Assembly: GCF_008831285.2 (NCBI RefSeq)
Contig: NC_045147.1
Coordinates: forward strand, 4,118,001 to 4,182,000
Length of the DNA: 64,000 nt
Origin: Nymphaea colorata
Lineage: Eukaryota > Streptophyta > Magnoliopsida > Nymphaeales > Nymphaeaceae
Direction: 5' to 3'
Under the pieces are notes generated by a model that ran no database searches, was not told the origin of the DNA, and saw only the letters and a program-made list of their open reading frames with translations. Positions within the stretch are counted from its first letter, which is position 1. Every line of letters begins with the position of its first letter. The position numbers and the translations under genes are program-made. Of this stretch, positions 24,182 to 53,874 are shown in pieces.

Positions 24182-27100
24182 TGTAATACGTGCCAAGAGC
24201 ACTACCAAGAACAGCCAAAGCCGAAGTGAGGCTAACTTTTGGGAGGCATCCGCAAGCGCTAGCGTCAACATTTTAAGTGAGGCTAACGGGCAGCGAAGCA
24301 TAGCAGTGGCGATATGCGTTGAAATCCTTAGGGAAGCTAAGGCGGAGGAGTGCCTTGAGGGTGCCAAGAACCGAAATCATAGTGAGGCTACCATCCTTGT
24401 AGTGATGAGTCATGGACAAAGCGAGGCAGCCAAGGCCGAGCCTAGTGAGTTAGCCGCAAAGGGTATTAACGCCCAAGAACTCCTACACGGTGAAGGTATG
24501 AGGCAGCTAGGTGCGATGAAGGTCAAGAGCCAACTTGAAGAAGGATCCGAACTTAGTAATAGGACGAGTCAACAAGAGGTTCCGATGAGCAGCACCAAGT
24601 CGGTCCAAGGTCAAAGCAAGCTCAACGTGTACATGGTTGAAGATTTCATATGGGACCCGGGAGGACCGCGCCTAGCCATCTTCTACAACAGCCTATGGAC
24701 AACCTAGGCAAGGTGGGCGCAAGTCCAATCACGTGCCAAACACTTGCAAGTAGATTTGGATCACGGGTCAAGCGCCCAAAGCATTTCTAGTTCATGTTCT
24801 TTATTTTTGAAACAATTTACTTGTGTATTGTCTCAAACCGAGACAAGCTAGGAACCGGTTCAGCCCAAGCTATAAATGCTAGAACTGAGTCAATGTACAT
24901 ATGCTTTTCGAAATATTGAATCGAGAGTTTCTCTCTCTTTCTCCCGCGTGAAGTTTCTTTGGCCCCTAGGGTGTGGCTTCTTAGAAGCACTACAACGCAA
25001 ATGCTCTACATCGTGTGAGTAGTATTGTGAGTTCAACTAGAGGGATGGCACTAGAATCTGTCACCGGACGAACCACTAACGAGCAGCCCATCTGACAGTG
25101 CATTCTCTCAGACCACGAGAAAGTTTAGAGGTCAAGGAGTAGGGTACGTGCATAGGAGGAGAGGCGCTCCTGGCTCTGGCGGTGATTTCCAGCCTTGCAC
25201 ATCAACCACCAGCGACAAGTCTTACCCATTATCCTAGGTACTTACGGTAGTTTTGTTGGTTTGCATCTGATCTAGTAGATCAACAAACGAGCGATTAGAG
25301 GAAGATCTGGCGCATTTACTCATCTCTTCGACGAGGTTCTAACACCGGGACTGTCTTTGGTTGGTCGTGGGTTTGACACAGTCATTCATGCCATTTGATT
25401 GATTGATTTTGGGCATTAACATTGGCGAGAGATCAAGGACAACCTAAGGAGAAGAAAGGAGAAGAAGATCAAAGCAAGAAGAAGGTCGCGGTTTTCTGTA
25501 GGAAACCGCAGTAGAGGTGTCTGATTAAAAGGTCATATCCGGCAATCCGTCGAGAGTTAGAGGATGAACCTGGTACCGTTGGAATCATCTAGAAGTCCTC
25601 TACAACATATTCAAATTTGGTGGTGATCGGAGATCCTTTGCATGGTCAAGTCAGTGGCGGAACATATCAAATATCGCCTACTGCAACTCTGCTACAACCA
25701 GCGGCAAATCTGCCCAATCAGAGGCAGTTTTCCGGTGATCTGTCAAGAGCTTAGAGGAGTTCTTGGTACCATTGAAATCATCTCGATGTCCTATACAACA
25801 TACTCAATTTTTGTGGCAATTAGACTCCATTGGTGGACGAACCAATAGCAGAATCATGACTATCTGCACCAGCAATCTTGATGGAATCTGAGCTACATTT
25901 GGTGTCACCGGTCATTATTCTGACCAATTTCAGTCCATACAATGGTTCAGTGAATTATTTCCATTTTACCCATGGATTACAATAATTTCATTATTATTAT
26001 ATCAAAATTATATGAGGGTATTTTGGTCTTAAGGAAAAGGATAACATCGTAAGAGAAGAGGACAAACCTTAGCGCTGCACCTCAGAGTCATCTCTTTCCT
26101 ATTCCATCTCCTATCAAATAGAAAAGGTGGGACTCGTGGCTAGGTCGTGAAGAGCTGCTTAAACTGGCTCACACCAATTGAGGAAGGTGGAGGAACACGT
26201 GGCAGGCCGAGGAGAAAGGTGTCATCTAGAGGGGCAACTAATTTGGGACGATTTTGAATAGAACATGGAGGGTGCGCTACATGTCCCTCGTCCCTAAAGG
26301 CAAGGAGCGCACTTACACAATTCGTCCCTAAAATATTTGGGAAAGTGCTTTATTGCCCTCTACGTTCATTGAACCTAGACTTGGGCGGACAAGGAAGGAG
26401 TCTTGCGCAAGATTAGGTAAGGATCTTGGCCCACACTGAGATAGGAAGGTGATCACGTCCAACTAGGAGATATTCTTGGAAGGAGATCATGAACAACCAG
26501 CGCATTGAATCTAGACGGCACCTAATTTGAAAGGTGAGGAGGAGTCATGCATGCAAGTGGGACTCATCTCTCTTGATGTGTGAACTTGGTGCCATCTTTA
26601 GGAGGAGCTCAAGTCGGCAACTAAGGAAGGGATTGACCTGGCCTAACCGTGACTCATCTAGTCAACCTTCCTTACACGAACCGGGTGGAGTCAAAGCTTG
26701 ACTAGGGGTCTCAACCTAGCCTTGACCAAGAAGGCTCGAACCTACCAAGTCCACCGCCAGACCTATCCTGAAGGAACTGCGTCTGCCAAGCAAGATTGGC
26801 GATTGCATCCCCAAATCGACTTGTTTACATCTTGGGGTTGAACGTGAATCCGGTGAATGCATCTACCTTCTCACATCTCACTGGTTTATCTTGATTGAAT
26901 AGTGATATCTTGCCATCTGATTTAGCAAGGTGTGCATTGGCATGTGGCTGAACTCTCGTGGAGGATCGTTGAATACCAAGGAGTAGCTAAGGCTACGGTG
27001 TTCATCCTTGGTGATAGCTAGAGGAGACCTCGGGCGTGGCCCCGAGAGGTAAAATTCATATCACCTTATAGTAATCAGGGTTGGGCATCTGATTCTAATT

Positions 27101-27549
27101 AGCCTTTGGGCTAAGTCAGCAACCGTGAGTTCCTCTAAAGCTCTCTTTGGCTGAAGACACAATCTCGGGCTGAGAAGACTACCTAAGGGAAATTGATATG
27201 GTTTGCATATGCTTAGACATAATTTAACAGGGTGGTTTGGTGATTGGATGTGATTGCTTGAGTGAGGAGTGCTGAAATGTATTGCTTACATTTGTAATAA
27301 GCCTCACAACCTCTTAGCTTCTTTAGTAGGTTATACTTGGGCAGGGTTAACCTTATATGTAAATTTATCCTATGGGTTAATTTTTAGCTGGGGTTGCTGT
27401 CCAGCAAAGGAGAAATTTGTATAACCCGACTATGAGAAATTTGTATAACCCGACTATTCTTGGTTCTAGTGCGCCTCCCTCCATAGATCTTGAGAGTAGG
27501 TTTGGCCTTCGGCAGCGAAATTTTATCCACTACAAGATTGACCCTAACA
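24182..27549 (+). mobile_element. Element B, 5' LTR (about 3.4 kb)
   Basis: It begins TGTAATACGTGCC and ends GACCCTAACA, two bases before the primer-binding site TGGTATCAG. Its sequence recurs along almost its whole length at 31272-34894, and the pair bounds a 3.7 kb internal region. The U3-like part carries a long open frame (24153-24707 on plus) matched in the other copy. A TATA box with flanking inverted motifs lies near 24871. The two copies differ by many substitutions and indels, so the insertion is old. The left flank is CAAAT; no matching right flank exists because element C abuts the other LTR. Confidence 0.85.
24828..24891 (+). promoter_or_regulatory. LTR promoter of element B
   Basis: TTGTCTCAAACCGAGACAA (24828-24846) is a perfect 7 bp inverted repeat. 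The palindrome GAACCGGTTC (24852-24861), the TATA box TATAAATGCT (24871-24880) and GAACTGAGTC (24882-24891) follow. The same order stands in the 3' LTR near 31960-32021, where GAACCGAGTC replaces GAACTGAGTC. Transcription would start some 25-30 bases after the TATA box. Confidence 0.6.
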
Positions 27550-27550
27550 G

Positions 27551-27990
27551 TTGGTATCAGATCGAGATGGAGATCTAGGTGCAACTTATAGTCAGCCGAA
27601 AATATCATCCGTAGCCAGGCTTTCCAGCAGGTTTTTTTTGGTAGATTCAAGTAGCATTGGTAAAGATATTATACTCTACCGATACCAACTTAATGATTGG
27701 TATCAGAGCAAGATAGAGATCTAGGCGCAGCTTATATTCAACCGAAAATATCAACAACAACCGGGACTTTCCAGCAGGTTTTTTCCAGTAGATTCAATAG
27801 CATTCAGTAGAGATATTGGACTCTACTGGTACTAACTTAACAGTTGGTATCAAAGTGAGATGGAGATCTAGGCACAACTTATATTCAGCTGGACATATCA
27901 GCCGTAACCGAGACTTCCTAACAGGTTTTTTTTGGCAGATTCATGTTGCAATTCGGTAGAGTTATTAGAGCATTGTGGGGGACTCAGACT
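27551..27990 (+). repeat. Three tandem copies of a 146-147 bp primer-binding-site unit
   Basis: TTGGTATCAGA/TTGGTATCAAA starts at 27551, 27697 and 27844, so the periods are 146 and 147 bp. Each unit contains GAGATCTAGG, CAACTTATA/CAGCTTATA, a TTCC(A/T)(G/A)CAGGTTTTTT block and an AGATATT/GAGTTATT segment. The middle copy has TGGTATCAGAGC, the exact sequence complementary to the 3' end of plant initiator tRNA-Met; the first and third have changes in it. Only the first stands directly next to the LTR, where a primer site is normally used. Confidence 0.8.
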
Positions 27991-28766: not shown

Positions 28767-30455
28767 GAGGAGCAGTCCCCACTAGTTCAGTCCATAAAAG
28801 ATTCATTTCAGACCTTAATCCCAATCCAGAACAAAAATTTGAGAACAAAAATATCGGATTGGGAATATCAAGATCCATGGGAGAACTCACCCCATGGATA
28901 CAACTCATACGATGAAAATAAGTGTTATGAGGATGAGAAATACTCCGACGATAACAACTATGGTCAATCATGTGGAGAATAGTATGATGAAAGGGACCAA
29001 GGTTATAGAGAGCAATCCCAAGATGAACGTTCCGAGAGGTCCTACCAATTTAGTTATGGGGCAACTTGGGTCGATCCAACAAGATACCACCCTCAAACCA
29101 CCTATCCCTCATCAAGTTATACAAACAAGAATAGAAGTAATGAGAAGCAAGAGCAATGCCCAAAGCAATATCATGATCCTTATGGTCAAACAGTCCCCAT
29201 TCAAAAGGAAGAAAAAGATCTAGTTTTTGCTATATACGAACAAGGTATACATCAGAAGGACATCCTCTTAATACGTGGAACCGACATGAGAAAAAGACCA
29301 AGAAAAGAGTATTTCATGGCTGGGAGAAGTTCAGATTGTGTCATCGTGTTCAGAAAGCCAAGTGTTCATGCATATCATTTTGAGCTATGCATTGACAAAG
29401 GATACCAGAAGTTTTGGGTGACAAATGTAACATGAAATGGTAGATTGAGTGTCTCCAAAGATAATATTAGTCCACAACAAACTGTATAAATCTACATGGG
29501 AGAAATTTTTTAGGTAGGGGACTCAAGTAAAGAGTGGAAGCTGGAATCGGTATCCCAAACTTCAAACGAAACCCATCTCTCAAAGTCAAACACCAAAATG
29601 GAGCACTTAGAAGTAAGGAGAGATGCCGACTTGTATTTGAAGAATGACCAGCTACCAAGATCCTCAAACACCCCCTCGAAAGTCCCCTCAAGTGAAGCAC
29701 AAAACTCATGGTTGGTAGCTTCGAGATCCCAAAATCCAACAAAGGAGTTACGGTTGGAAAGGAAGAAAGGATGGAATGAGTATTCTCAGATGAAGCAGCA
29801 ATTTGAAGAATTGGAGAAGTCCATTGTCGAATTGGTGAATGAAAAAAGGGCACAAGAGAAACCGATTCCAAAAGGATCAGAAACCCTTAAGAACAGAGAG
29901 AAAGTATTCCAGACTCCCAATGAGTACAAGGAACAAGCCCAATCTAATCCGACCAAACTTAAGCCAGCCAAGAAGAATAAGAGGGCTTTCCATATTTTCA
30001 AAATTAAGACCCAAAAGCCCAAAACAAAGACTCGTTCCCTTGCCAATGAAGGAGCCATGGTTTTCCCTACGTCCTTCAAGAAGGAAGCTCTTATGGATAT
30101 GCCAACACAATGATTTGAAAATATGGAGGGTTACAACCGAGTCTATATGGAACTCGAGTGGCACGAGGTGGCTGAAGAAGACGAGGGTCTTTCTGTGGAG
30201 AGTAAGTTGTCACCTAAGGAGGGTGGGGATATATCTAACCTCAATGAGGAAAGCATAGAACCAACCGGCCTATGCATGGCAACTTGTCACAAGAAGATGG
30301 TTCTCCCTCAAGCGGTTAAGTCGTTGCCCAAGGAGGGTGTACCCGTGGCATATGGAATTGGGCAGACCAATTCTTGGCAGCTTCTAAAGCTGCCATCCCC
30401 ATTCGTACAATTCTACATGAGGAGCCTAACCATGAGCATAATGGAAGCACGGTGA
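28767..30455 (+). pseudogene. Element B ORF: Tyr/Gln-rich region, FHA-like domain, Lys-rich tail
   Basis: One reading frame runs through this interval, interrupted by stops at 28980, 29433, 29487, 29511 and 30111. It begins with a region rich in Tyr, Ser, Gln and Asp (28854-29160). Next comes an FHA-like domain (about 29295-29520): EYFMAGRSSDCVIVF matches the first strands and the GR-S motif, KPSVHAYHFEL the conserved S/H turn, FWVTNVT followed by NGRLSV the later strands. FHA domains bind phosphothreonine peptides. Then follow a predicted coiled coil (QFEELEKSIVELVNEKRAQE) and a Lys-rich tail. No protease, RT or integrase is present. The start codon is unclear. Similar in plan to the ORF of element D; the FHA call rests on motif reading only. 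Confidence 0.6.
30213..30226 (+). promoter_or_regulatory. Internal polypurine-like tract (element B)
   Basis: CCTAAGGAGGGTGG is nearly the same as the tract next to the 3' LTR (TGTAAGGAGGGTGG). A weaker copy (CCAAGGAGGGTGT) lies at 30328-30340. In frame it encodes Pro-Lys-Glu-Gly-Gly. It could act as a second priming site for plus-strand synthesis. Confidence 0.4.
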
Positions 30456-31254: not shown

Positions 31255-31268
31255 TGTAAGGAGGGTGG
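31255..31268 (+). promoter_or_regulatory. Polypurine tract of element B
   Basis: TGTAAGGAGGGTGG ends three bases before the 3' LTR start TGATATATGCC. It is the expected plus-strand primer position. Confidence 0.7.
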
Positions 31269-31271
31269 AAT

Positions 31272-34200
31272 TGATATATGCCATAGTTGGACTTCGTCGA
31301 GGAATACCTAGAGCACTACCAAGAGCGGCCAAAGCTGAAGCTAACTTTTGAGAGGCAACCACAAGCGCTAACGTCAACATTTTAAGTGAGGCTAATGGGC
31401 AGCGAAGTGTAGTGGCGGCGATGTGCATTGAAATCCTTGGGGAGGCTAAGGCAGAGGAGTGCCTTGAGGGCCCCAAGGACCGAAACCATAGTGAGGGTAC
31501 CATTCTTGTAGCGACGAGTCATGGGCAAGGTGAGACAGCCAAGGTTGAGACTAGTGAGTTAACCGCAAGGGGTATTAACACCCAAGAACTCCTACATGGC
31601 GAAGGTATGAAGCAGCTAGGTGCGATGAAGGTCAAAAGCCAACTTGAAGAAGGATCCAAACTTAGCAAGAGGATGAGTGCACAAGAGGATCCGATGAGCA
31701 GCACCAAGTCGGTCCAAGGTCAAAGCAAGCTCAACGTGTACATGGTTGAAGATTTCATATGGGACCCGGGAGGACCGTGCCTAGCCATCTTCTACAACAG
31801 CCTAGGGACAACCTAGGCAAGGTGGGCGCATGCCCAATCATGTGCCAAACACTGGTCAGCAGATTTGGATCACGGGACAAGTGCCGAAAGCATTTCTAGT
31901 TCCTGTTCTTTGTTTTTGAAACACTTTACTTGTGCATTGTTTTGATTTGCTTTTGCATCGTCTCAAACCGAGACAAGATAGGAACTGGTTCAGCCCAAGC
32001 TATAAATGCTGGAACCGAGTCAATATACATATGATTTTTGGAATATTGAATCGAGAGTTTCTCTCTCTTTCTCCCGCGTGGAGTTTCTTTGGCCCCTAGG
32101 GCGTGGCTTCTTAGAAGCACTACAACCCAAATGCTCTCTATCGTGTGAATAATATTGCAAGTTCAACCAGAGGGACGACACCAAAATCCATCACCAGATG
32201 AACCAACAATGAACAGTCCATCCGATGGTGCATTATCTCTGACCACAGGAGAGTTTAGAGGCCAAGGAGTAGGGAACGTGCGTAGGAGGAATGGCATCCA
32301 TGGCTTTGGTAGTGATTTTCAGCCTTGCACATCGACTACCGACAACAAATCTACAAGATAAGTACCGATTCACTTAGGTACTTACGATAGTTTTGTTGGT
32401 TTGCTTCCGATCTAATAGATCAATGCAAGAATCAACCTAAGTATCCGGGAGAGATCTCGCCTAAATTAGGTTGAATCAAGTGGTATCGATCTAGATTGAA
32501 GGTTGAACCAGACGAGCGATTAGAGGAAGATCCGACGCATTTACTCATCTCTCCGGTGAGGATCTAACACCGGGACTATCTCGAGTTGGTCATGGGTATG
32601 ACACAATCATTCCTGCCATTTGATTGATTGATTTTGGGCATTAACATTGGCATGGAATGAAAGACAACCTAAGGAGAAGAAGATCAGAGCAAGAAGATGA
32701 GCCTACAGAAGGCCATATGTGGTGATCTGTTAGGAGCTAGAAGATGAGCCTAGTACCGTTGGAATTGTTTGGAAGTCGTCTACAACATATTCAAATTTTA
32801 GAGATCGTTTGCATGGTCAAATCAGCAGTGGAACAGATCGAATATCCCCATCGCAACTCTGCTGCGACCAGCCACAGATTTGCCTGATCAGAGGCACTTT
32901 CCTGGTGAGCCGTCAAAAGTTTGGAGGAGTTCTTGGTACCGCTGGAATCATCTCAATGTCCTCTACAACATGCTCATTTTTCATAGCAATCAGACTTTGT
33001 TTGGCAGGTGAACTAGTAGGAGAATCAGGACTATTTGCACTAAACAGAATTCGACTTACATTTGATGCCGCCGATCATTATTCTGACCAACTTCAGTCCA
33101 TACAATGATTCAGTGAATTATTCTCATTTTACCATTGGATTACAATAATTTCATTATTATTATATCAGAATTATACGATGGTATTTTGGTCTTAAGGAGA
33201 GGACAACGCCGTAAGAGAAGAGGACAAACCCTAGCGCGACACCTTGGAGTCATCTCTTTCCTATTCTGTCTCTTATCAAATAGGAAAGGTGGGACTGGTG
33301 GCTAGGTCTTGAGGAGCTGCTTAAACCAGCTCGCACCAATTGAGGAAGGTGGAGGGACACGTGGCAGGCTGAGGAAAAAGGAACCGTCTAGGAGGGGTGA
33401 CTATTTTGGGATGATTTTGAATAGAGCATGGAGCACGCGCCACACATCCCCCGTCCCTAAAGGCAAGGGGCGCCCTTACCCAATTCGTTCCTAAAGAATT
33501 GGGATAGTGCTTTATCGCCCTCTAGGTTCATTGAACCTAAACGGCCTTGAATACGGAAGGAGCTGAATAAAGAAGGTGCCGCCACCTAGGTTCATTGAAT
33601 CTAGACGACACCTAACTTGGAAGGTGAGGAAGAGCCATGCGTACAAGTGGGACCCATCACTCTTGACGTGTAAACCATGCAGCCGAATTCGACCCACTCT
33701 TTTGGAAGGAAGATCAATGAGCCAAATCGGGGAGGACTACTTGCCCATTTGGAAGGTGATCTTGGCGTCATCTTGGGAGGAGCCCTAATCGAAAAGAGGA
33801 AGAAAGGGAAGGTATTGCCAGCTAAGAGGAGATCTCGCTCAATTCGAAAGGTGACCCTCGTTACCTAAGTGGAAGGACTTTGATTGGAGGAATCTTGGCC
33901 CATGCCAAGATTGGAAGGAGAGCTTGTGCCATGATTGGATGGAAGGCTAGACCTAGTCAACCTTTCCTAACCCGGTTTGAGTGGAGTCAACATGGTCAAC
34001 ATAACCAAAGAAGCTTGGACAAAGATAATTAGTCAGCTTTGACCAAGTTGGACGTGGACCAGTGGCCAGATCAAGGAGGCGTGGACCCACCTACATGCGT
34101 GGATCTTGAAGGCTCAAACCTACCTAGCCTAGCACCATACCTACCTTGAAGGAACCACGTCCACCAAGCGATATTGGCGATTGCTTCCCCCAACTCTCTT

Positions 34201-34894
34201 TTGCAACTTGGGGTCAACTAGGGTTCAGGTGAATGCATCTACTTTAGTACTCATGCTTGTTATACTTGATTGAATGATGATTCTTTGTCACTTGACTTAG
34301 CAAGGTGTAAGGAGCGTGTTGCTGGACATATCTCGGTGGCTCGTAGAATACCAAGGAGTAGTTAAGGTTGTTGGATTTCATCCTTGGTGTTAGCTAGAGG
34401 AGTCCTCGGGCATGGCTCCAAGAGGTAAAATTCTAATCACTCTATAGTAATTGGGGTTGGGCGTGTGATTGTAACCAGCCTTTGGGCTGAGTTAGCAACC
34501 GTGGGTTTTTCTAAGACTCTCTTTGGCCGAAGACACAATCGTGTGTTGAAAAGACCACCTAAGAGAAATGGGTATGGTTTGCGTACGCTTAGGCATGGTT
34601 TGACAGAGTGGTTTGTGAATGTGAATTCTTGATTGAGTGAGGAGTGCTATTCATGTATCGCAAATGTTTGTAAAAGCCTCACATCCTCTTAGTTTCTGTA
34701 GTAGGTTATACTTGGGCATGGTTAACCTCACTTGTAAATCTGTCCTACGGTTATCATTTAAGCTAAGGTTGCTATCCAGCAGGGAAAAAATTGTAGAAAT
34801 CTAATTAAGTTGGTTCTAGTGTGCCTCCCTCCAAGGATTTTGGGAGTAGGATCGGGCTTTGGCGGTGAAATTTTTACCGCTACAAGACTGACCC
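31272..34894 (+). mobile_element. Element B, 3' LTR, lacking its last five bases
   Basis: It begins TGATATATGCC and follows the 5' LTR closely, including the U3 frame (31412-31816), the TATA region near 32001 and the 3' end module. It ends ...GACTGACCC where the 5' LTR reads GATTGACCCTAACA; the terminal TAACA is absent and the LTR of element C begins at the next base. Internal indels make it about 250 bp longer than the 5' copy. Confidence 0.85.
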
Positions 34895-37844
34895 TGTTAT
34901 AGACCAACCTAGGGGTCCACTGAGCATTGTCGATGAGGCTGTTGAGAGCAGCCGACACAACCGAAGGGCATCGGCTAGATGTGTGGCAGTGGTCGGCCAA
35001 GGCATAGAGATGCCTAAGGAGGTTGACAGAAGACTTGGAGATGCGATAGTGGGTGGTGTGGGCACAGCATCAACGGCCAAGTGCGAGCAGCTAATAGTGG
35101 AGCTTCAAGGTGGTCCAGAGCCAAGACAAAGACTTAAACCCAGTCGAGATTTGATCGAACTAGTGTCATGTTCAAAACCCACTTCGAATGAGGCAGCCTA
35201 AGGCCGAACTTGGGCAAGTCAACAGGCTGAACCTACCAGGTGAGGCCAAGCTACTATTGAAGACCGAGCCTGGGCAGCACCCAGACAAGTCCCCCTCGAG
35301 CTCACAAGGCTCGAGACAACTTTAAACTCTTGAGACATCTCGTCTCGTTTTGATTTCATGTTATTTGCTTTTGCATGGTGCGACATCTTGGTTCAATGCT
35401 TTAGTGAACCAGAACAGATTAAGACTGCTTAATTTTGTTTTTTAGAGTTTAACCCTAAGCATGTTTATGTTAATGAAAGTTTTATTCTCTTTCATCTCCC
35501 GCCTTTCCCCCTCTCTTCACCTCCCATATGCTTCTGCTTCTTCTCCATTCCATGCACGGAATTCGATCGGCGCCGCCAGTGGTCTCTCGAAAAATATGAC
35601 GGTCTTCTCTTCTCTTCCCCGATCATGATTCCCTTTCTCAATCCCTCGACCGAAGGACAACAGTTGAAGGTGTCAAGGTGAGCTCCGACGACCTGCGATG
35701 ACTTCAGCCCTGATTTACACCAGCTAGCATGGCAAAGTAGATATTGGTGCATTCCCCCGCACACCCACAGAGGTTTAGAGGCCAGATCTACAACGAGAAG
35801 GCTGTTTGGCGAAAGATTCACCTATGGTTCTGGTGTATTCTCTCTAAGAGCAGCGTCATTCGACTCCTTGACCCCAAGGCAAGTGTCCAACCCGACTTCG
35901 GTCATCTTCTTGTAGGATTAGGCAGTAGAAGACAGATTTGATCAAGGTTTCCATCTAAGGAGATTGGGCATCTCCCCTTGGCCACCACTGAGTGTAGCTT
36001 GTCTAGTTCCACCAATAGAAATCTGAGTTTGTTCTATTGGTTTGTCCATGACTGATTTCGTTTGTGAATCCTTGTTGACGATGAGTGTTGGAGAGCATTG
36101 CGATAGAGGAGACGACAACCCGTGTGGAAGGCATCTCAATTTAACAATTTTCTCCCGCCAATTGCTGAATTCTCCATCTCGACAGACATCCTTTTGTTAC
36201 AGTCAACTAATCAGATGGTTCACTCAGCAACTCCTCGCCAAGTCTCATCGATTTATCCTAGGGGAGACTAGATCTCGAAACGACCAAAGTTTCACCTTCA
36301 ATCAGCTGTTTCGGGTAACTTAGGCCGATAGTGCCTTCCGTGACCGACCCCTCATTTCCGACCAGTTAGTGCAATTTTGGTGACATATCCGGCCAGTTGG
36401 TGCAATTTCGATGACATCCCCATTTTACCCTTGTGTTCAATTGATATTTGATTAATTAATCTCGTGCTTGTGAGGGTAATCTAGTCATTCGAGAAAGGAC
36501 CCGCCTAGGGCTCCAAAAACATAGCCACTGGCTCTTGGCTCTCTTTCCTTATCCGTTCCCAACCAAATTGGGAAGAGTTTTAGGCACCCAACCTCGGTCA
36601 ATGTCAGCTCTCCATCGGTGACGTGTGGCAGACATCGAGAATAAGAAGGCCAGGTAAGAGGTCCACCTTGTCCACTTTCCTAAGAACATGCAACATCAAC
36701 CACGCGCCCTCCTCCTCTAAAAAAAGGAAATCGCTACCACCTCATCCCCTCTCCTTCATTTTAGGAAGCTAACTACCTGTCCCTAAAAAGTAACCCCCTC
36801 TCTCACACCAAGTGTCCCCTCTTTTCCTATAACCATCCCTATTGATTAGGAAACCCTGCCACCTCTCCTCCCCCACTTATCAAAACTGTTCCTTCCATTT
36901 AGGAATGTTCCCACGTGCCACAGCCAGCCTCCTTTCCTTACAATAACCGCCCGAACCCTAACTGCTCCATTAGCCTATCTGACCATAGCCGGAACCAAAC
37001 CTATCCCGTGCACCCTAACCTCATCTAGTCATGTTGACCATCCTAGACCCAAGCCTCACAACCTCGATTCACCTTCCCTTACCCTGCTTAGCCTCCCTTG
37101 GTCAACTTCATTAACCCGGATCGAGACCCTCCAACCCCTTGGCGGACTCGGCGCTCTCAGCAGTCGACCTCAGCAAGGTGACTCCTCAACAGCTGCAGCA
37201 AGCACTCCGGCAGCGATAGGGTTATCGGCAACCACCGCCAACGACCGCAGATGATCTCGGCCACCTCGGCCGAGAGCCGTCAGCCTCATCTCCTTCTGTA
37301 GCTATCGGTAATCACCTGGTGTCTATTTGCTGGTTTAGCCGAGAATCCTCGGCTGGTAATCTCTCCACCCCCTATAGATACGTGGGTTAATGGGTGTTTA
37401 TTGCATGTTTCCATTTGAACTCAACTTTGCCTTTGCATCTGGTAGCGATCCCTTGGAGGCCTTCTAACCAAAGACATGGTTGCGGGATTGCTAAGACCAC
37501 CTACAGGCTGGGTGTGGTTTAGCCAATTTCTAGGTTGTGGTTTGTAAATTGTTTGCTATAAATGTGCATGGTTTGTGAGTGAGTTGTGAGAGTTTCTTTT
37601 GTACCGCTCGCAGTTGTATGGCCTTGAACCCCATTTTTATAGTAGGCAGCAGGACTTTCAGGAGGGTTAAACTCTACTTGTACCGTTGTCTTAAGGGTTT
37701 TTTGCGCTGGACTGCCTGTTCGGCTAGGTAGTGTCTTGTAATAACTTGTCCTTATGGTTGGTTCTACAGCTTTCCTCTAGAGATTCAGGCGTAGGATTGA
37801 CACTCGGGTCACGGTCTGGTCGACGCTGGGGTTAAGTCCCATCA
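34895..37844 (+). mobile_element. Element C, 5' LTR (about 2.95 kb)
   Basis: It begins TGTTATAGACC and ends TCCCATCA, followed by GT and the primer site TGGTATCAAAGCC. Its first 1.6 kb recur at 43106-44740 as the 3' LTR. Its 3' end module (GTGTGGTTT, GAGTGAGTTG, GTAGGCAGC, then GGCTAGGTAGTG) is shared with all other LTRs in the right part of the window. A splice-donor-like AAG/GTGAGC lies at 35678. Confidence 0.85.
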
Positions 37845-37846
37845 GT

Positions 37847-37859
37847 TGGTATCAAAGCC
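37847..37859 (+). other. Primer-binding site of element C
   Basis: TGGTATCAAAGCC differs by one base from the sequence complementary to initiator tRNA-Met (TGGTATCAGAGCC) and lies two bases after the LTR end. Confidence 0.85.
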
Positions 37860-38061
37860 ATCTTGAGGAGTAGCCGACAGTTGTCAATTGGTTTTCTTTG
37901 GGGTTTTTCAGTTTTTGGTTGGTAGAAGTCAATAGTAGCAGATTTGGCATTGTAGTCGATGTTTTGTATAGGTGTAGCTCACGACCGAGCTTGCTATCCA
38001 TAGTAGCAAGGCACGGGTTGTGTGCACAACACAACCGAGGTAGCCAAGCTCGAGGTGAATT

Positions 38062-38156
38062 GTCGAGGCGTCAGGCGGACGTGGTAATTAAGGCTCCATC
38101 TTAGAGCCCAGCCGAGAGCAAGGTGTTGCAGCCGAAGTGCTAGGGGGCCGCGGCTA
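38062..38156 (+). promoter_or_regulatory. Conserved two-copy GC-rich leader motif (element C)
   Basis: GTCGAGGCGTCAGGCGGACG at 38062 and GCCGAAGTGCTAGGGGGCCG at 38131 are 69 bp apart, as in B and D. The copies are more diverged here. They sit in the leader before gag. Confidence 0.55.
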
Positions 38157-38355
38157 TAGGCAGGCTATTCCGTCTCCCTTGTCGACAAGCACACGGGCAG
38201 CAGTTGTAGCAAAGAAGGCAGAAATTGGAGTTTGGTAGCTTTAGTTTCCTCAGCATAACTGTGGCAGTATTCGGGTCTTGGGCAGTCTAGCTGTGGTGGT
38301 AGTTGTAGTTGGGATTTCGGTGAAATTGGTGACTTTTGCTTAAAGTGATTAACCC

Positions 38356-39690
38356 ATGTATAAGGTTTTTGTAACAATGGGCAAGAAAAACAAGCAGCCC
38401 ATCATAGACTTTCCCGAACAAGAGGAGGAGATGTCTAGCCATGAAGAACAACAAAATAAGGGTTCTGTAGAAATACAAACCTATAATATTGAGTGTATGG
38501 CCATCCTTGAGAATGAGATGATGCGAATGAGGCACAAAATCATAGGATATAAAAATCAACTCAACAAACTTAGTGAGTTGGACAAAATTAAGGAAATGAT
38601 TTGACCCATATCTGCAAATCAACAAGACACGAGAGCTCAAGGAGAAAGAACGGCCCAAGGGCCTAATCCTGGGTTAGATTAAGGAAAAGGCATACTTGGC
38701 AGAACTCCTAGTCCCCCTTCGTTCCCCAATGGAAATGAATCGAATCCTCCACTTTCCCATATTGGCACAAGTAGAGCGAGTGGGACATTGAATGGAGAAT
38801 GGCAGCACATGCCCGAGCCCGAAATGCATATCATAAATGGACCCCCAAACAGGCCTCCAAATGGGCATAACCGAGTACGATTGGGACAGCCCCCATTCGC
38901 TCACATTAGCAAGAACAGACCTTGGGGAAATCAAGTAGATGATGATGACCCATTGATGTGGAAGCAAGAAAGGATAAGAGCAATAGGTAGCCAAATCATA
39001 CGAGAGGCATCTCAGTTAAAATCAAATTCCCATGCTTTAAAGGCTAGGATGTCAAGGATTTGATTTTCAAAGCTGAGCAGTATTTTATCTGTCAGCACAT
39101 TCCTGAGCATGAGTGGGTAATGATAGCGGATATGTATCTTGAAGACGAGGCTATGTGTTGGTATCACTGGCTAAAGCATACCCACCCGATGATTGTATGG
39201 GATCATTTCAAACAAGCCTTACAAGTCTGATTTGGTGACTCTTCTTACACTGATTTTGACATCGAGTTGAAGAACATATCTCAGACATCCACAATACAAG
39301 AATACCAAAGCAGGTTTGAGAATCTATCATGTATGGTTGAATGGCCGAACAAGGCCTTAATTGTGCTTTCATTGGAGGACTAAAAGAGGAAGTACAAATA
39401 GAAATGAGATCCCAGCGCCATACTGATCTAGTGGAAGCAATGTCAAATCCTTGCATTAAAAAAGTCATATAGAATGAATGAGCCCAGCAGGAATAGAGCA
39501 CCTCCGCCTAGAAATCCTCCACCCTTCAAAAAGGAGGAACCTAAACCTATTTTCTGTGATAGGGTGCCTACTGCTTACATAGTAGGCAGGAACGAGAGGA
39601 AATTCTTAAGAAGAATATGTGCTTTTATTGCAAAGAGAAATGAGAAAAAAGACACAAGTGCAAGAGTTATTGAGTATTTGAAGTCATAGA
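38356..39690 (+). pseudogene. Element C gag
   Basis: Broken into several frames. The N-terminal part (38390-38600) is a likely coiled coil ending YKNQLNKLSELDKIKEM. A linker follows with KGILGRTPSPPSFPNG (about 38690), a motif also found in the ORF of element D. The capsid-like part (39060-39470) is recognisable from IGGLKEEVQIEMR. A zinc knuckle CFYCKEK*EKRHKC (about 39618) keeps both cysteine pairs and the histidine, with a stop where a Trp codon is usual in this family. Gag would form the virus-like particle in the cytoplasm. It cannot be expressed intact here. Confidence 0.75.
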
Positions 39691-39769
39691 CGACAGTGAT
39701 AACAAGGAAGAGCAAGTTCCTCAAGAAGAAAACCCACCACATGAAGAGTAAGGTGACACAGAACCTAGA

Positions 39770-40018
39770 GTGGAGAGTGAGAGCACATGTCACTTGATGA
39801 TGGACTCCAATAGACCCAACGCAAGGCGGGTCATGGGAACAGTTGGAGGAAAAAAGGTGCTGGTATTGCTTGACTCTGGGGCAACGCACAATTTCATGAG
39901 TATAGAGGCAGCAAAATCTATAGATTGCCCTCTGACTTTACAAACTCCAATCACGGTTATGGTTGGCTATGGTTCTCGTTTGTTTGTACTCATATGTGCA
40001 AAGGAGTCGAATTGGTAA
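39770..40018 (+). pseudogene. Element C aspartic protease
   Basis: [17 protein letters not shown] contains the D-S-G catalytic triad of retroelement aspartic proteases, intact. The frame is lost at about 40018 by a frameshift, and the following spacer contains KEGG encoded by a purine-rich tract. The protease normally releases Gag and Pol products. Confidence 0.8.
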
Positions 40019-40250
40019 TGCAGAAGTTACCATTTACAATGGATCTATTGGTTTTACCAATCGGAGGGGTACATATCGTTCTTGGAGTCAAATAGTTGGA
40101 GACCCTTGGTGTAATTTCTTGGGACTTCAAGAACATGAAGATGAGCTTCGCCAAGGAGGGAGGTGACAACCCTGTCACCTTGACTATGGTCAACACTAGT
40201 GTAGATCCCAAGGCTACACTTAAATCCATCATTGCACAACAACCAGCTTT

Positions 40251-40990
40251 TTGGGTAGTAGCAATGGCATCAGATGTGCCACCATGGAAAAGGAAGATGA
40301 AAAAGAACCTACTGAAATTCAGCAAGTACTTGGGAAGTTCGAAGATGTGTTTGAAGAGCCTAAAGGTCTGCCCCCGAAGAGGGCCTATGACCGTTGGATT
40401 GTTATGGCCCAAGGGGACAAACCTATAAATGTGCACCCATACAAGTACGGGCATGATCAGAAGGCAGAAATTGAAAGATTGGTAGTAGAGATGTTGAATG
40501 GGGGAATTATACAACCTAGTTGTAGCCCATTTTTATCACCAATTCTTCTTGTAAAAAAGAAGGACAACACTTGGCGCTTCTGGATAGATTACAGAGCGCT
40601 AAATGAGGCCACAGTAAAGGACCGACATCCCATATCGGTTATTGATGAACTGTTAGATGAATTGACTAGTGCTACTGTGTTCTCAAAGATAGACTTACGG
40701 GTCGGGTATCATCAGATCAGAATGGACAAGGCAGATCTCAAAGACCGCGTTTCGAACTCATGATGGACATTATGAGTTTCTGGTTATGCCATTCGGTCTA
40801 ACCAATGAGCCTACAACCTTCCAAAGGTGTATGGTGTATGAATGATGTATTCAGACACCATCTTCACTATTTCATCTTAGTCTTCATCGATGATATCCTC
40901 ATTTGCAGCTAGTCTGTCGAACAACATTCCGTACATCTCACCATGACCTTACAACTCTTGATAGGGAACCGCTTATATGCAAAAAGGTCT
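40251..40990 (+). pseudogene. Element C reverse transcriptase
   Basis: The N-terminal part is open for 170 codons (40251-40763): [40 protein letters not shown] and [15 protein letters not shown] are standard Ty3/gypsy RT motifs. After a frameshift come [16 protein letters not shown] (about 40780) and the catalytic VFIDDILICS (about 40880) in other frames. Motif order and spacing are normal; only the frame is broken. Confidence 0.9.
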
Positions 40991-41039
40991 TAGTGCAGCT
41001 TCAACCAGTCTTCGATCATGTATTTAGGACACATTGTGT

Positions 41040-41700
41040 CCACATAAGGGGTAAAGGCTGATCCAGAAAAGCTGAATGCAATGCATAAATGGCCCTTGCC
41101 GAAAGATCTAAAAAGCTTGTGAGGATTCCTGGGGTTAAGAAGTATAACAAGAGGTTTATCCAGGGCTATGGAATTATAGCCACCCCGTTACCCCAAATGT
41201 TGAAGAAAGGGGCCTTTGTGTGGACTGAAAAGACTCGGGCAGCATTCGATAGATTAAAGTCGACCCTCATGTTAGTGCCCGTGTTGACACTCAACAAGCC
41301 CTTTATCATAGAGACAAATGCATGTGATATTGGCATCGGGGCAGTCCTCCGCCAGGATGGTCACCCCATAGCATATATGCTCGAAAGCGTTCACCAGCCA
41401 GGCTAAACCTCTATCGACATATGAGAAAGAACTTCTCGCCATTGTTCTCGCAGTAGAAAAGTGGCGGCCGTATCTCATTGGCTGCTAGTTTATAGTAAAA
41501 ATAGACCAAAATAGCCTGAAGTATATGCTGAAGCAGAGTATCCCCTCCAACCCAACAAAGGTGGTTGGCAAAACTTCTAGGCTATGATTTTGACATCGAG
41601 TATAAATATGGTGCAGACAATACTGCGGCAGACACCTTGTTGCGCTTGAATGAGCACCTGTCAACACTATCGGTCGTACAAACAAACTTGTGGGAGTGAT
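41040..41700 (+). pseudogene. Element C RNase H region
   Basis: Continuation of pol: FDRLKSTLMLVPVLTLNKPF and ACDIGIGAVLRQDGHPIAYM (41230-41385), then LSTYEKELLAIVLAVEKWRPY in another frame (about 41410-41470). These match the RNase H domain of Ty3/gypsy pol. Frameshifted, non-functional. Confidence 0.85.
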
Positions 41701-41839
41701 TGGCCGTCGAGCAGCAAGAGGATGGGGGACTAAGCCTTATCAAAGCCTCTCTCCACCAAAATCCAGGGTCAATCCCACACTACTCCCTGAAAGGAGGCTT
41801 GCTGCAGTGGAAAAATCATGCATTGGTTCCCCCGGAATC

Positions 41840-42760
41840 AGTTCTTAAATAGGTTCTACTGCACCACTTTCACTCGACTCCCTTAGTGGGCCACGAAGGG
41901 GTTGCCAAGACCCTCAATTGAATCAAAGGACAGTTCTGGTGGCAAGGATTAAAAACAGACGTGTAGAAGTATGTGTGGAGTGCCAACGAGAAAAATACGA
42001 GGCAATAAAGCCTCTCAGTCACTTAAACCCACTACTTATACCTACTACGCCATGGACCAATATCACCATGGATTTTATTGATGCAATGCCCAAATCAGAG
42101 AACAAGGAAGGGGTCCTAGTGGTAGTGGATAGGCTGACCAAGTACGACCACTTTCACCCTTGCCAAAGATGTATCAAGAGCCAATGGTGTCAACAATCTA
42201 CCAGGAGTACGTAGGAAAGTTGCACGGCATGCCACAGTCAATAGTCTACGACAGAGACTCAATTTTCTTGAGCTCTTTTTGGAAAGTGTATATGAAGTTA
42301 ATGGGCATAACTATCTAATTTAGTGCAGCTCACCACCCTCGGACGGGTAGAGTGAGATTGTTAACCGGTCCTTAGAAATATACCTAAGGTGCTTTGCGGG
42401 AGAACAACCGAATATGTGGGTGAGATTTTTACCATGGGCTGGATGGTCCTACAATACGAGCTGGCACTCATCCACGGGCACCACACCTTATGAAGCCCTC
42501 TACGAGTTTCCACCATCCGTAATTCCGAGGTATGAAGGAGGCATGGCTATAGATGATGGAGTAGACTGTGAATTGCACACTAGGGAGGAGGTGTTGGCCT
42601 CTCTCGAGCAAAGCATCTCTAAGGCACAAAACCGCATGCAGCAAACGTACAACAAGGCCCGTAAAGATCGAGAATTTGAAGTAGGAGATTATGTTTGGCT
42701 TAAAGGGCTTCTAACGAGGCAAAAATCTCTCTTGGGATAGCCATATTCAAAGCTTCTACC
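41840..42760 (+). pseudogene. Element C integrase
   Basis: A zinc-binding H-H pair (HHFHSTPLVGHEG, about 41860) precedes VCVECQREKYEA carrying the C-C pair. The catalytic core shows TNITMDFIDAMPKSENKEGV (about 42058), with the first Asp, then VYDRDSIF with a second Asp (about 42245) and FSAAHHPRTGR (about 42320). The C-terminal part (42414-42740) has NTSWHSSTGTTPYEALYEFP and FEVGDYVWLK. Several frameshifts break it. It would insert the element cDNA into chromosomes. Confidence 0.88.
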
Positions 42761-43196
42761 CAGATATTATGGGCCATATCCTGTGCTACAGAAGATTGGA
42801 AAAGCTATGTATAGACTCAACCTCCCACAAACAGCCATGGTACACCCAGTATTCCACGTTACCAGGCTAAAGCCTCACTGTGGAGAAATCCCAACACAGA
42901 TTCAGTAGGTCCCTAATCAACTACCTACTCCCTACCACATATTGCACCACCACCATGTCCAAGGAAATGGTAGGCTAAGGCATGAGATTCTGGTGGAATG
43001 GGAGGGCTCTGATAGTGGAACTTCATGGAAAGAGTTTGAGCAGATCTCTCATCGATTTTTGGATGCACGTGCATGGGGACAAGCTCGATTTAAGGTGGGA
43101 GGATCTGTTACAGACCAACATAGAGGTCTGCCAAGCATTACCGAGGAGGCTGCTGAAGCAGTCGACACAGCCGAAGGGCATCGACTAGATCGGTGA
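42761..43196 (+). pseudogene. Element C pol C-terminus, chromodomain-like, running into the LTR
   Basis: KLLPRYYGPYPVLQKIG and MVHPVFHVTRLKPH are the usual end of a chromovirus integrase. After a stop, EILVEWEGSDSGTSWKEFEQ is a chromodomain-like segment (V-x-W-E-G ... TSWE-type), as in plant chromoviruses, where it directs integration to marked chromatin. The frame continues ARAWGQARFKVGGSVT and passes through the polypurine tract into the first 90 bases of the 3' LTR. Confidence 0.75.
43092..43105 (+). promoter_or_regulatory. Polypurine tract of element C
   Basis: The purine-rich AAGGTGGGAGGAT lies immediately before the 3' LTR start TGTTACAGACC. Confidence 0.7.
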
Positions 43197-44740
43197 CGGT
43201 GGTTGAGAAAGGCATAGGGATGCCTAAGGAGGTTGATAGAAGACTTGGAGATGCGACAGTGGGCAGTGTGGGCAGAGCATCAACGGTCAAGTGCCAGTAG
43301 CTAATGGTAGAGCTTCAAGGCAGTCCAGAGCCAAGACAAGGACTTAAACCCGGTCTAGATCTGATCAAACTTGTGTCATGTCCAAAACCCACTTCAAATG
43401 AGGCATCCTAGGGCCAGACCTAGGCAAGTCAACGGGCTGAACCTACCCAGTGAGGCCAAGCTACTATTGAAGACCGAGTCTAGGCAGCATCCAGACAAGT
43501 CCCCTTCGAGCTCACAAGGCTCGAGGCAACTTTAAACTCTTGAGACGTCTCATCTCATTTTGATTTCATGTTATTTGCTTTTGCATGGTGTGGCATCTCG
43601 GTTCGGTGCTTTAGTGAACCGGGATAGATTAAGAATATTTAAGTTTGTTTTTTAGGGTTTAACCCTAAGCATGTTTATGTTAATGAAAGTTTGATTCTCT
43701 TTCATCTCCCGCCTCTCCCTTTCTTCTCCTTGCATCTGCTTCTTCCTCATCTTCTCCATTCCCTGCACAGAATTTGACCGGCACCACCGGCGATCTCTCC
43801 AAAAATCCAACGGTTTTCTCTTCTCTTCCTCGATCCCGATTCTCTTTCTCAATCCCTCGACCGAAGGACAACGAATGAAGGTGTCAAGGTGAGCTTCGAT
43901 GAACGGTAGTGACTTCAACCCTGATTGACCCCAGCTAGCAGCCTAGCACGACAAAGTAGATATTGGTGCATTCTCCGCACACCCACGGAGGTTTAGAGGA
44001 CATATCTACAACGGGAAGGCTGTTAGGTGAAGGATTCATCTGTGGTTCTGGTTTATTCTCCCCAAGCAGCAGCGACATTTGGCTCCTTGACCCCAAGGCA
44101 AGTGTCCAACCTGACTTCGGTCATCTTCCTGTGGGATTAAGCGGTAGAAGACGGATCTGATCAAGGTTTCCATCTGAGAGGATTGGGCATTTCCCCTCAG
44201 CCACCATCGAGTGTGGATTGTCTATTTCCACCCATAGAAATATGAGTTTGATATGTTGGCTCATCCACGATTGATTTCATCCATGAATCCTTGTTGACAA
44301 TCGATGTTGGAGAGCATTGCAATAGAGGAGACGACAACCCGTGTGGAAGGCATCTCGGTTTAACAATTTCCTCCTACTGATTGCTAACTTCTCCATCTTG
44401 GCACACATCCTTTTGTTACAGTCGACTAATCAGATGGATCACTCAGCAACTCCCAGCCAAGTCTCACCGGTTTATCCTTGGGGAGGCTAGATCTAGAGAT
44501 GACCAGAGTTCCACCTTCGATCAGCTGTTTCGGGTAACCCCTAGGCTGATTGTGCCTCCGGCGACTGACCCCTCATTTTCGGCCAGTTGGTGCAATTTCG
44601 GTGACATCACCATACACTTGCATTCAATTAATATTGATTAATTAATCTCATTCTTGCGAGGGTAATCTGGTCATTCGGGTAAGGAACTGCCTAGGACTCC
44701 AAAACCCTAGCCGCCGACTCTTGGCTCTCCTTCCTTAGCC
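43106..44740 (+). mobile_element. Element C, 3' LTR, truncated
   Basis: It matches the 5' LTR from its first base (TGTTACAGACC) for about 1.6 kb, including the splice-donor-like AAG/GTGAGC at 43889. The match stops at 44740 (...CTTCCTTAGCC); the remaining 1.3 kb is missing and a reversed element fragment begins. Confidence 0.85.
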
Positions 44741-45636
44741 ATGGGTGGTTCCTCTACATGACAGCCCTTGGCGCCTAGTACGAGCTCATCTCGAAGTGGA
44801 CAATGGATCAACTCTGTCCTATCATTCGGCAGTATACTCTCAAGTAGATCAAGCTCACATAACCCTTTTTTTTTTATATTCCGTCAGTTCAGCTAGAGCT
44901 TGACACATTGCCTCAATTTTGTTGAGTATCTCCTTATCAGTGATAAGCTCTATATTGTTGAAACTTTCAGCCTTTTCTTTCATTGGCTTTGGCTGGTTAC
45001 TAGATGTAACTGATTTTGGATCAGCTCGACTTTTAGGGGCTTGAGTGACACTATTTGCAACCATAACCGTATTGGTCACCACTTCCTTCTCTTACATAGG
45101 GGGTTCGTTTGCCATAGATACATTCTTCACAGCATAAGCCTGCCGATAAGCTTTTGAATCACCCATTTTCCATGGTGGAGGTTTATACACGCTGCTGGTT
45201 TCTGCTTCACCACTTATGCCCAGCCTTTCAACACCTTGGCATGAGAAGGCCTGCATGATAGGTTTTTGTGTTTCCTGTCTTCCTTGGGTGGCGATCCATA
45301 CTAGCTGATGGGGCTGTATTGCATGTGGTACCCGTGGAATTGGAGTTACCATTCATCTTCTTCATTTTGCCTCCTTGATCCTTGGAAGAAGAAGGGGTCA
45401 TGGCCCTTAACATTTCCCTGATTTCTTCTTGTTCATCGAGTTTTCGAAGTCGTAGTTGGCACTCCAAGAACTCTTGACTCATCTGGTGTATTTCCTTCTC
45501 AAGGAATGAGACTTTCTCAATATAAGATGTCCCCAACTTGTGAGGAGTTGTATACGGCTCACTTGATGGATCCGATTTGTCACCATCTTCACTAGATGTC
45601 ACTAGTAAGGTATGAGACTTTCTCAATATTGCTTTT
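44741..45636 (-). pseudogene. Reversed fragment of a third D-type element ORF
   Basis: On the minus strand this encodes a piece homologous to the middle of the D ORF. SKAYRQAYAVK...MANEPP matches NAKAYRQFYAVK...IANKPN of D. KIEAMCQALAE matches LLMCQALAS. After a frameshift, ESILPNDRTELI...AKGC matches QSILPKEKVELI...SKGC. The 5' part (45228-45665) has a coiled-coil segment ending CQLRLRKLDEQEEIREM that resembles element C gag. It has no LTR of its own at either end, so it is a broken, inverted remnant. Confidence 0.75.
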
Positions 45637-46061
45637 CGCATTTGCTTTAGCTTGGCCTTGGCCAATCATTGAACTCAGTGGTACCTCGACGGCCCTTGGT
45701 CTAGACACGACCACTAGTCAACAATCCTACCTAGGGGAATTGGGTGTGGTTTGCTTCGACTAGGAATAGTTTGTATGGTTTGTTGAGTGAGTTGCGAGAG
45801 TTCTCTTGTATCACATGTGCTTGTACGGCCTCACATCCCTCTAGTCATCTTGTAGTAGGTGTTACCATAGTTAGGATTTTGGGGATACCCCTGCTTGTAC
45901 ATCTGTCCTACTGGGTTTGCACCGGGGTCCTGTCTGGCCAGGTAGTTCAATTGTAATAACTTGTTTAGGTTTTTGGTTTACGGTTACCTCAGGAGATCTT
46001 GGGAGTAGGATTCAACGATTGGTTTAGGCTTTTCTAGTCCGTCGAAGGGTTGGTCCTAACG
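45628..46061 (+). mobile_element. Element D, 5' LTR, only the last 434 bp
   Basis: From ATTGCTTTTC onward it is nearly identical to the end of the LTR at about 53356-53788. It ends GGTCCTAACG, followed two bases later by the primer site. The first 3 kb of this LTR are missing, replaced by the reversed fragment upstream. Confidence 0.85.
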
Positions 46062-46063
46062 AT

Positions 46064-46076
46064 TGGTATCAGAGCC
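46064..46076 (+). other. Primer-binding site of element D
   Basis: TGGTATCAGAGCC is an exact match to the sequence complementary to plant initiator tRNA-Met. Confidence 0.9.
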
Positions 46077-49244: not shown

Positions 49245-49258
49245 TCTAAGGAGGGTGG
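49245..49258 (+). promoter_or_regulatory. Internal polypurine-like tract 1 (element D)
   Basis: TCTAAGGAGGGTGG is identical to the tract beside the 3' LTR of D and is in frame as Ser-Lys-Glu-Gly-Gly within the ORF. Confidence 0.45.
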
Positions 49259-53788: not shown

Positions 53789-53874
53789 AATACCCCTCGC
53801 CCGGCTCTTCTATTCTGACTTGGCCATAACCTCGGTGCTCGGCGACATGCCTGCAATTTGGCACGTATTAGGTC
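53789..53874. other. 86 bp spacer between LTRs D and E
   Basis: A short sequence not matched elsewhere in the window; probably old target DNA in which the elements landed. Confidence 0.5.

What the first reader, a model, noticed from the sequence alone, without database searches (positions are those of the whole stretch)
28767..30455. FHA-like domain encoded by an LTR retrotransposon without pol (element B)
Seen: between two 3.4-3.6 kb LTRs, one frame (with stops) reads EYFMAGRSSDCVIVF, KPSVHAYHFEL, FWVTNVT and NGRLSV in the order and spacing of an FHA domain, including the G-R and S/H positions that contact phosphothreonine. Known: FHA domains read phosphorylated proteins in DNA-damage and cell-cycle signalling; I know of no described plant LTR retrotransposon that encodes one. 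Inferred: the element captured or evolved a phosphopeptide-binding protein, perhaps to hijack host kinase signalling or to target chromatin.
Basis: partly seen in the sequence, partly recalled or inferred. Interest (0 to 1): 0.88.

Follow-up and report, generated by a model that had tools for sequence, protein, structure and literature searches.

The report
Retrotransposon family encoding an FHA-fold protein
A family of plant jumping elements with no recognisable copying enzymes of their own carries one gene for a protein with a forkhead-associated (FHA) domain; selection keeps the domain, but the residues that would let it read phosphorylated proteins are mostly gone.

Summary
The finding is real and larger than reported. 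The B frame matches Pfam FHA above its cut-off (25.7 vs 20.7 bits), and the same window holds a second, better-preserved copy (element D, 47475-49655; 23.8 bits). The genome holds a large family: 125 and 158 matches with the two queries. One fetched copy has 99.83% identical 3.53-kb LTRs, an AAACC target-site duplication, a PBS, a PPT and one intact 658-aa ORF in which FHA is the only Pfam match. The domain is under purifying selection (dN/dS 0.32); 39 of 40 stop-free domains match PF00498. LTR ends, PBS, leader and PPT resemble those of a gag-pol-bearing Ty3/gypsy element in the window, so I infer trans-mobilised non-autonomous elements. Reading of phosphothreonine, the proposed mechanism, is not supported: in 60 distinct copies the phosphate-contacting Ser is in 0, Arg in 21 and Asn in 5, while structural Gly and His are in 53 and 50. 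The likeliest role is phospho-independent docking or assembly (inferred). Seven literature searches pairing FHA and retroelement terms listed no such element (titles and abstract starts seen).

The parts
24182..27549 (+). Element B 5' LTR (TGTAATAC...CCTAACA)
   Evidence: Direct repeat with 31272-34894, 82.5% identical over 3189 aligned columns
27552..27563 (+). Element B primer binding site (TGGTATCAGA..., initiator-tRNA-Met type; tRNA assignment recalled)
28767..30455 (+). Element B protein frame (N-terminal Q/Y/D/E-rich stretch, FHA, charged tail); 5 internal stops
29217..29552 (+). FHA domain of element B
   Evidence: PF00498 25.7 bits; 38 of 112 residues identical to the element D domain without gaps
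31258..31271 (+). Element B polypurine tract (AAGGAGGGTGGAAT)
   Evidence: aligned with elements C and D
31272..34894 (+). Element B 3' LTR, cut at its last bases by element C
34895..44740 (+). Element C: gag-pol-bearing Ty3/gypsy element (Retrotrans_gag, RT, RNase H, integrase zinc domain, SH3_Tf2-1; protease match below its cut-off), coding frame broken, 3' LTR truncated; shares LTR end, PBS, leader and PPT features with B and D
44741..45623 (-). Reverse fragment F, collinear with the tail of the element D protein (third relative in the window)
45624..46061 (+). Element D 5' LTR remnant
   Evidence: 45624-46060 is 91.5% identical to 53351-53787
46064..46075 (+). Element D primer binding site
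47475..49655 (+). Element D FHA protein frame, 1 internal stop (48336-48338); ATG before the domain near 47601
47604..47939 (+). FHA domain of element D, no stop
   Evidence: PF00498 23.8 bits on the 125-aa stretch, 21.5 bits on the 287-aa ORF, 18.6 bits (below cut-off) inside the 1667-aa frame
50363..50376 (+). Element D polypurine tract
50377..53787 (+). Element D 3' LTR

Best explanation
Elements B and D are decayed members of a large family of non-autonomous LTR retrotransposons related to, and probably mobilised in trans by, Ty3/gypsy elements like element C in the same window. In place of gag-pol the family carries one long ORF, in the copies read mostly some 600-900 codons: an N-terminal FHA domain followed by a long charged tail. 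Shown: the FHA homology, a recently inserted intact copy, protein-level selection on the domain, shared LTR ends, PBS, leader and PPT features, and no recognisable gag-pol domain in the frames tested. Inferred: trans-mobilisation, and that the FHA fold works as a phospho-independent docking or self-assembly domain, most likely tying the element's RNA or protein to partner particles or to a host nuclear protein, rather than as a phosphothreonine reader.
For: FHA: B; D; 39 of 40 distinct stop-free domains match PF00498 at E <= 0.01, best 1.3e-8. A profile of the 40 domains finds 23 PDB sequences at E <= 1, most of them FHA proteins: NIPP1 E 0.0023, 2n84, CHFR, Rad53, Ki-67, Arabidopsis DDL. Mobility: the copy on contig C2 has a 3532-bp LTR repeat 99.83% identical (4 mismatches, 2 gap openings), AAACC on both sides, PBS, PPT and one intact 658-aa ORF. 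In 10 long frames tested Pfam found FHA in 9 at E <= 0.01 (7 above the cut-off) and no gag or pol domain in any. Selection: codon model dN/dS 0.321, lnL -6144.2, against -6297.7 with dN/dS fixed at 1 on the same tree; all 113 pairs with dS 0.15-1.0 have dN/dS below 1, median 0.34 (pairs are not independent). Partner: PPT and PBS alignments of B, C and D; leader C-D 148 bits and B-D 101 bits against a background maximum of 25.4 in 60 segments; genome copies L061, L063 and L067 match element C at leader, LTR end with PBS, and PPT respectively. Pocket: Gly 53, Arg 21, Ser 0, His 50, Asn 5 of 60 distinct copies. PMC4037201 (passages) says Arg, Ser and Asn bind the phosphopeptide while Gly and His stabilise the structure.
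Against: No function was tested. The two structure models are low confidence (mean pLDDT 52.9 and 53.6) and fold comparison was never available. The tail is weakly conserved: one D-F block is indistinguishable from neutral (865 of 3000 simulations reach the observed identity), the other weakly constrained (51 of 3000). B-C leader similarity alone is only slightly above background (29.7 vs 25.4 bits). Copies found with the B query keep Arg in 21 cases, so weak phosphate binding there is not excluded. A role for the host rather than for the element cannot be excluded, and no autonomous element with closely matching LTRs was looked for in the genome.
Confidence: 0.6

Rival explanations
1. The domain is a working phosphothreonine reader that recruits phosphorylated host proteins, with unusual pocket residues doing the work.
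For: PF00498 matches; Arg kept in 21 of 60 distinct copies, all of them found with the B query, and Asn in 5.
Against: Ser is in 0 of 60. The recently inserted copy (99.83% LTR identity) has Ser, Gln and Thr where canonical FHA has Arg, Ser and Asn. Structural positions are mostly kept while contact positions mostly are not.
Confidence: 0.12
2. The ORF serves the element as a Gag-like or Gag-associated assembly protein: FHA joined to relics of the partner's Gag N terminus and Pol C terminus, so that it co-assembles with partner particles.
For: L063 tail versus the region before and at the start of element C gag: 36.2 bits against a maximum of 29.6 in 100 shuffles; a stretch near the L063 C terminus versus the Pol end before the PPT (21 residues, 62%), E 0.003 (the latter also). 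FHA folds without a conserved pThr site occur in PrgH/YscD, ring-forming proteins (PMC3635987, passages), and 31 of 40 members match Yop-YscD_cpl at E <= 0.01; every such score I saw printed is below that family's cut-off.
Against: The gag match disappears with low-complexity filtering and composition correction, where only L063 of 26 ORFs gave any match; the element D tail versus C was no better than 60 shuffles. No capsid domain is recognised.
Confidence: 0.25
3. Passive transduction: each element picked up host FHA gene pieces independently and they have no role.
For: Plant LTR elements do capture host genes (PMC7264820, passages).
Against: B and D domains match each other at 70 bits but Pfam FHA at only 24-26 bits; 40 distinct copies align over one domain with dN/dS well below 1.
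Confidence: 0.05
4. Chance or a non-FHA beta domain.
For: Low-confidence structure models.
Against: 39 of 40 members match PF00498; most of the 23 PDB profile matches are FHA proteins; 9 shuffles gave no Pfam match.
Confidence: 0.02

Closest known systems
Non-autonomous LTR retrotransposons of plants (LARD type; type name and definition recalled)
   Same: LTR pair, PBS, PPT, no gag-pol domains found, dependence on a partner inferred
   Different: A conserved, selected FHA-domain ORF fills much of the internal region
Orchid Ty3/gypsy elements with an AlkB-type m6A demethylase ORF (PMC9289625: abstract, one section and passages)
   Same: LTR element with an extra domain of host type kept over rounds of replication
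   Different: Those were found by using reverse transcriptase as the marker; here no pol is recognised, so such a screen would miss it. FHA has 0 occurrences in that paper's main text
Retand elements with antisense TRP28 ORFs (PMC11963269: passages)
   Same: Extra conserved ORF, some members non-autonomous
   Different: Antisense, between pol and 3' LTR, different domain
FHA domains of NIPP1, PDB 2n84 (TbPar42; that name recalled), kanadaptin, and plant PSL proteins
   Same: NIPP1 and 2n84 are the best profile matches in the PDB; PSL/PS1 is a recalled lead, not a test
   Different: PSL FHA domains keep Gly, Arg, Ser and His (PMC3071787, passages); the element domains lack the Ser
PrgH/YscD cytoplasmic FHA-type domains of type III secretion
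   Same: FHA fold with a poorly conserved pThr site (PMC3635987, passages)
   Different: Bacterial structural protein; the Pfam match here is weak and, where a score was printed, below the cut-off

Membership tests
FHA domain (PF00498) | Sequence match above curated cut-off | tested here: met
   B 25.7, D 23.8, L033 31.6 bits vs 20.7. Of 10 long frames, 7 are above the cut-off; L048 17.9 and L023 18.7 are below it and L056 gave no match at E <= 0.01
FHA domain (PF00498) | 11-stranded beta sandwich | tested here: inconclusive
   B model shows 11 strands, D model 10, but mean pLDDT is about 53; fold search unavailable
Phosphothreonine-binding FHA | Arg, Ser and Asn contact residues | tested here: not met
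   Arg 21, Ser 0, Asn 5 of 60 distinct copies; B itself keeps Arg and Asn but not Ser
Phosphothreonine-binding FHA | pThr-peptide binding | not testable with these tools
   needs a binding assay
Non-autonomous LTR retrotransposon | LTR pair, PBS, PPT, target-site duplication | tested here: met
   All four in the C2 copy; LTRs, PBS and PPT in B; D has only a 5' LTR remnant. Target-site duplication not testable in B or D (3' end of B cut by element C, 5' LTR of D truncated)
Non-autonomous LTR retrotransposon | No gag-pol in the internal region | tested here: met
   Six frames of B and D and 10 long frames of relatives
Non-autonomous LTR retrotransposon | Mobilised by a partner | tested here: inconclusive
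   Shared ends and leader with element C; mobilisation itself not observed
Derived from plant PS1-like FHA genes | Closest to a host FHA gene in a tree | not tested
   genome search for PF00498 was asked 15 times and never answered

The most novel reading that the evidence does not exclude
A plant retrotransposon lineage has replaced gag-pol with a protein built on an FHA fold that no longer reads phosphothreonine, and uses it as an assembly or docking module to parasitise a partner element or a host nuclear complex.
Probability: 0.35. Interest if true: 0.85.

Novelty: new variant of a known kind. Interest (0 to 1): 0.72.

Why it matters
Non-autonomous LTR elements are usually seen as passive passengers (general knowledge). 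Here one family keeps a protein domain under selection while no copying enzyme is recognised in it, so the protein probably helps the element, or the host, in some specific way. A screen that uses reverse transcriptase as its marker, such as that of PMC9289625, cannot see such elements. Intact, nearly identical copies make the question directly testable.

Tried and rejected
Three protein-database searches (3796 candidates, none E <= 1; 202 candidates, none E <= 1; 22 candidates, none E <= 10), two viral-contig scans and one genome-contig scan found no relatives; one plasmid search gave only two short chance-like matches. NCBIfam gave nothing; Rfam and tRNA scans of the window gave nothing. A KGIL...FPNG motif shared by D and the element C gag region was first rejected as no better than shuffles; it returned more strongly in L063 but did not survive filtering, so it is only suggestive. 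A 3917-aa open frame at contig C321 is an artefact of an N run. In one search the two protein comparisons printed nothing, I think because of an unsupported option; D-F was redone, B-F was not. The host-gene search (PF00498 in the genome) was asked 15 times and never answered.

Limits of the counts: the 60 distinct copies are the 63 loci then held less 3 overlaps (L041, L028, L045); L038 aligns badly and reads a stop at the Ser position. They are mostly the best-scoring loci, not a random sample. About 40 places list an open frame of 600 aa or more without a stop (my hand count); only a few were read, and the C321 case shows N runs can inflate this. The 40 domains exclude copies with stops, which biases dN/dS downward. 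The 3000 simulations compare with the best protein alignment of B and D, a favourable choice. Of the ten literature searches, seven paired FHA and retroelement terms; one search listed 30 of 45 and one search listed 20 of 33. Three had other aims.

Full report
What is there. Element B is bounded by LTRs at 24182-27549 and 31272-34894 (82.5% identical over 3189 aligned columns, K80 0.205), with a PBS at 27552 and a PPT at 31258-31271. Between them one frame, 28767-30455, runs 562 codons with 5 stops. A simulation of neutral decay since insertion expects 6.8 stops (95% range 2-12), so the frame was probably open when the element inserted. The FHA stretch 29217-29552 scores 25.7 bits against Pfam FHA (cut-off 20.7). 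The other two plus frames and all three minus frames of the internal region have no Pfam match at E <= 0.1; in the FHA frame the only other match is a weak one, far below its cut-off.

A second copy in the window. Element D (5' LTR remnant 45624-46061, 3' LTR 50377-53787, the 437-bp pair 91.5% identical) carries a frame 47475-49655 with one stop in 726 codons (neutral expectation 2.8, range 0-6). Its FHA stretch, without stops, scores 23.8 bits alone, 21.5 in the 287-aa ORF and 18.6, below the cut-off, in the 1667-aa frame. The B and D domains share 38 of 112 residues without a gap. None of 3000 neutral simulations at the same DNA divergence kept that many (mean 24.1, maximum 35), though the stretch compared was the best protein alignment and so a favourable choice. 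A reverse fragment at 44741-45623 is collinear with the tail of D.

A genome-wide family. The genome (407.8 Mb, 783 contigs) gives 125 matches with part of the B protein and 158 with part of D (lower bounds, and some places give several pieces). Many lie at 28-31 Mb of contig C3. The domains of L061 (contig C2), L029 and L062 (both C3) are identical. The C2 copy is a textbook element: an LTR repeat of 3532 bp, 99.83% identical, AAACC on both sides, PBS directly after the 5' LTR, PPT before the 3' LTR, internal region 2639 bp, one intact 658-aa ORF. A second (L063) has LTR pieces 96.3 and 97.2% identical and an 867-aa ORF. In 10 long frames tested (8 of them with X at stops) Pfam found FHA in 9 at E <= 0.01, 7 of these above the cut-off, plus sub-threshold Yop-YscD_cpl matches, and no gag or pol domain.

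It is an FHA domain kept by selection. Of 40 distinct stop-free domains, 39 match PF00498 at E <= 0.01. Their profile retrieves 23 PDB sequences at E <= 1, most of them FHA proteins, led by NIPP1, 2n84, CHFR and Rad53, with Ki-67 and Arabidopsis DDL further down. The codon model gives dN/dS 0.321 and is 153.5 log units better than with dN/dS fixed at 1. All 113 pairs with dS 0.15-1.0 have dN/dS below 1, median 0.34 (pairs are not independent, and copies with stops were left out). The structure models are of low confidence but all-beta, with 11 strands for B and 10 for D.

It is probably not a phosphothreonine reader. PMC4037201 (passages) names five conserved FHA residues: Gly and His hold the structure; Arg, Ser and Asn touch the phosphopeptide. 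In 60 distinct copies Gly is kept in 53 and His in 50, but Arg in 21, Asn in 5 and Ser in 0 (alignment to solved FHA domains). Two further copies read later (L067, L068, not in the count) also lack Ser by eye. All 21 copies with Arg were found with the B query. FHA folds with a poorly conserved pThr site are known in PrgH/YscD of type III secretion (PMC3635987, passages), and 31 of 40 members match Yop-YscD_cpl at E <= 0.01.

How it moves. Elements B and D share PBS, PPT and LTR-end features with element C, a Ty3/gypsy element with gag, RT, RNase H, integrase zinc-domain and SH3_Tf2-1 matches, its reading frame broken. Leader similarity C-D and B-D is far above background (148 and 101 bits versus at most 25.4 in 60 background segments); B-C alone is marginal (29.7). 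Genome copies repeat this: L061 leader with C 70.8% over 209 columns, L063 LTR end plus PBS with C 65.9% over 592, L067 PPT with C 87.8% over 41. I infer that gag-pol elements of this kind supply the enzymes; no mobilisation was observed. The L063 tail resembles the region at the start of C gag in an uncorrected comparison (36.2 bits, 100 shuffles at most 29.6) but not after filtering; a short stretch near the L063 C terminus matches the Pol end beside the PPT (E 0.003, both calls). This hints, no more, that the ORF is an internal-deletion product of gag-pol with FHA in front.

Host. A PPR gene with an E motif lies at 19492-21075, so I take this for a plant nuclear genome. Its size and number of long contigs resemble the 409-Mb, 804-scaffold, 14-chromosome Nymphaea colorata assembly (PMC7015852, passages); this is inference, not identification.

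Literature. Seven searches pairing FHA and retroelement terms listed no LTR retrotransposon that encodes an FHA domain, judged from titles and abstract starts; subscription journals and preprints are not held. The review of additional ORFs (PMC7264820, passages) has no occurrence of FHA, and the 121-genome screen (PMC9289625, abstract, one section and passages) used RT as its marker, so RT-less elements would be outside it. Its supplements were not seen.

Noticed in passing
window 27545-27969: The PBS and the start of the leader of element B are repeated 2.9 times (147-bp unit), giving three PBS-like copies at 27552, 27698 and 27845.
   Followed up: no
window 50377-63769: A cluster of related LTR stretches: about 53873-57644, a tail at 58508-59018, about 59062-63269 and an inverted tail 63308-63769, sharing LTR ends with each other and with D.
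   Followed up: partly
window 19492-21075 (-): Open 528-codon PPR frame with E motif.
   Followed up: no
window 7932-8285: Copia-type RVT_2 relic.
   Followed up: no
G000 contig C3 28.4-30.9 Mb, C6 22.5-22.6 Mb, C12 5.2 Mb and many small contigs: FHA-element matches cluster there, some 5-8 kb apart with equal scores, perhaps a pericentromeric array.
   Followed up: no
L067 and L068 (contigs C10, C4): A further subfamily with 880- and 770-aa frames, two PBS-like sites upstream, Gln in place of Arg and no pocket Ser.
   Followed up: partly
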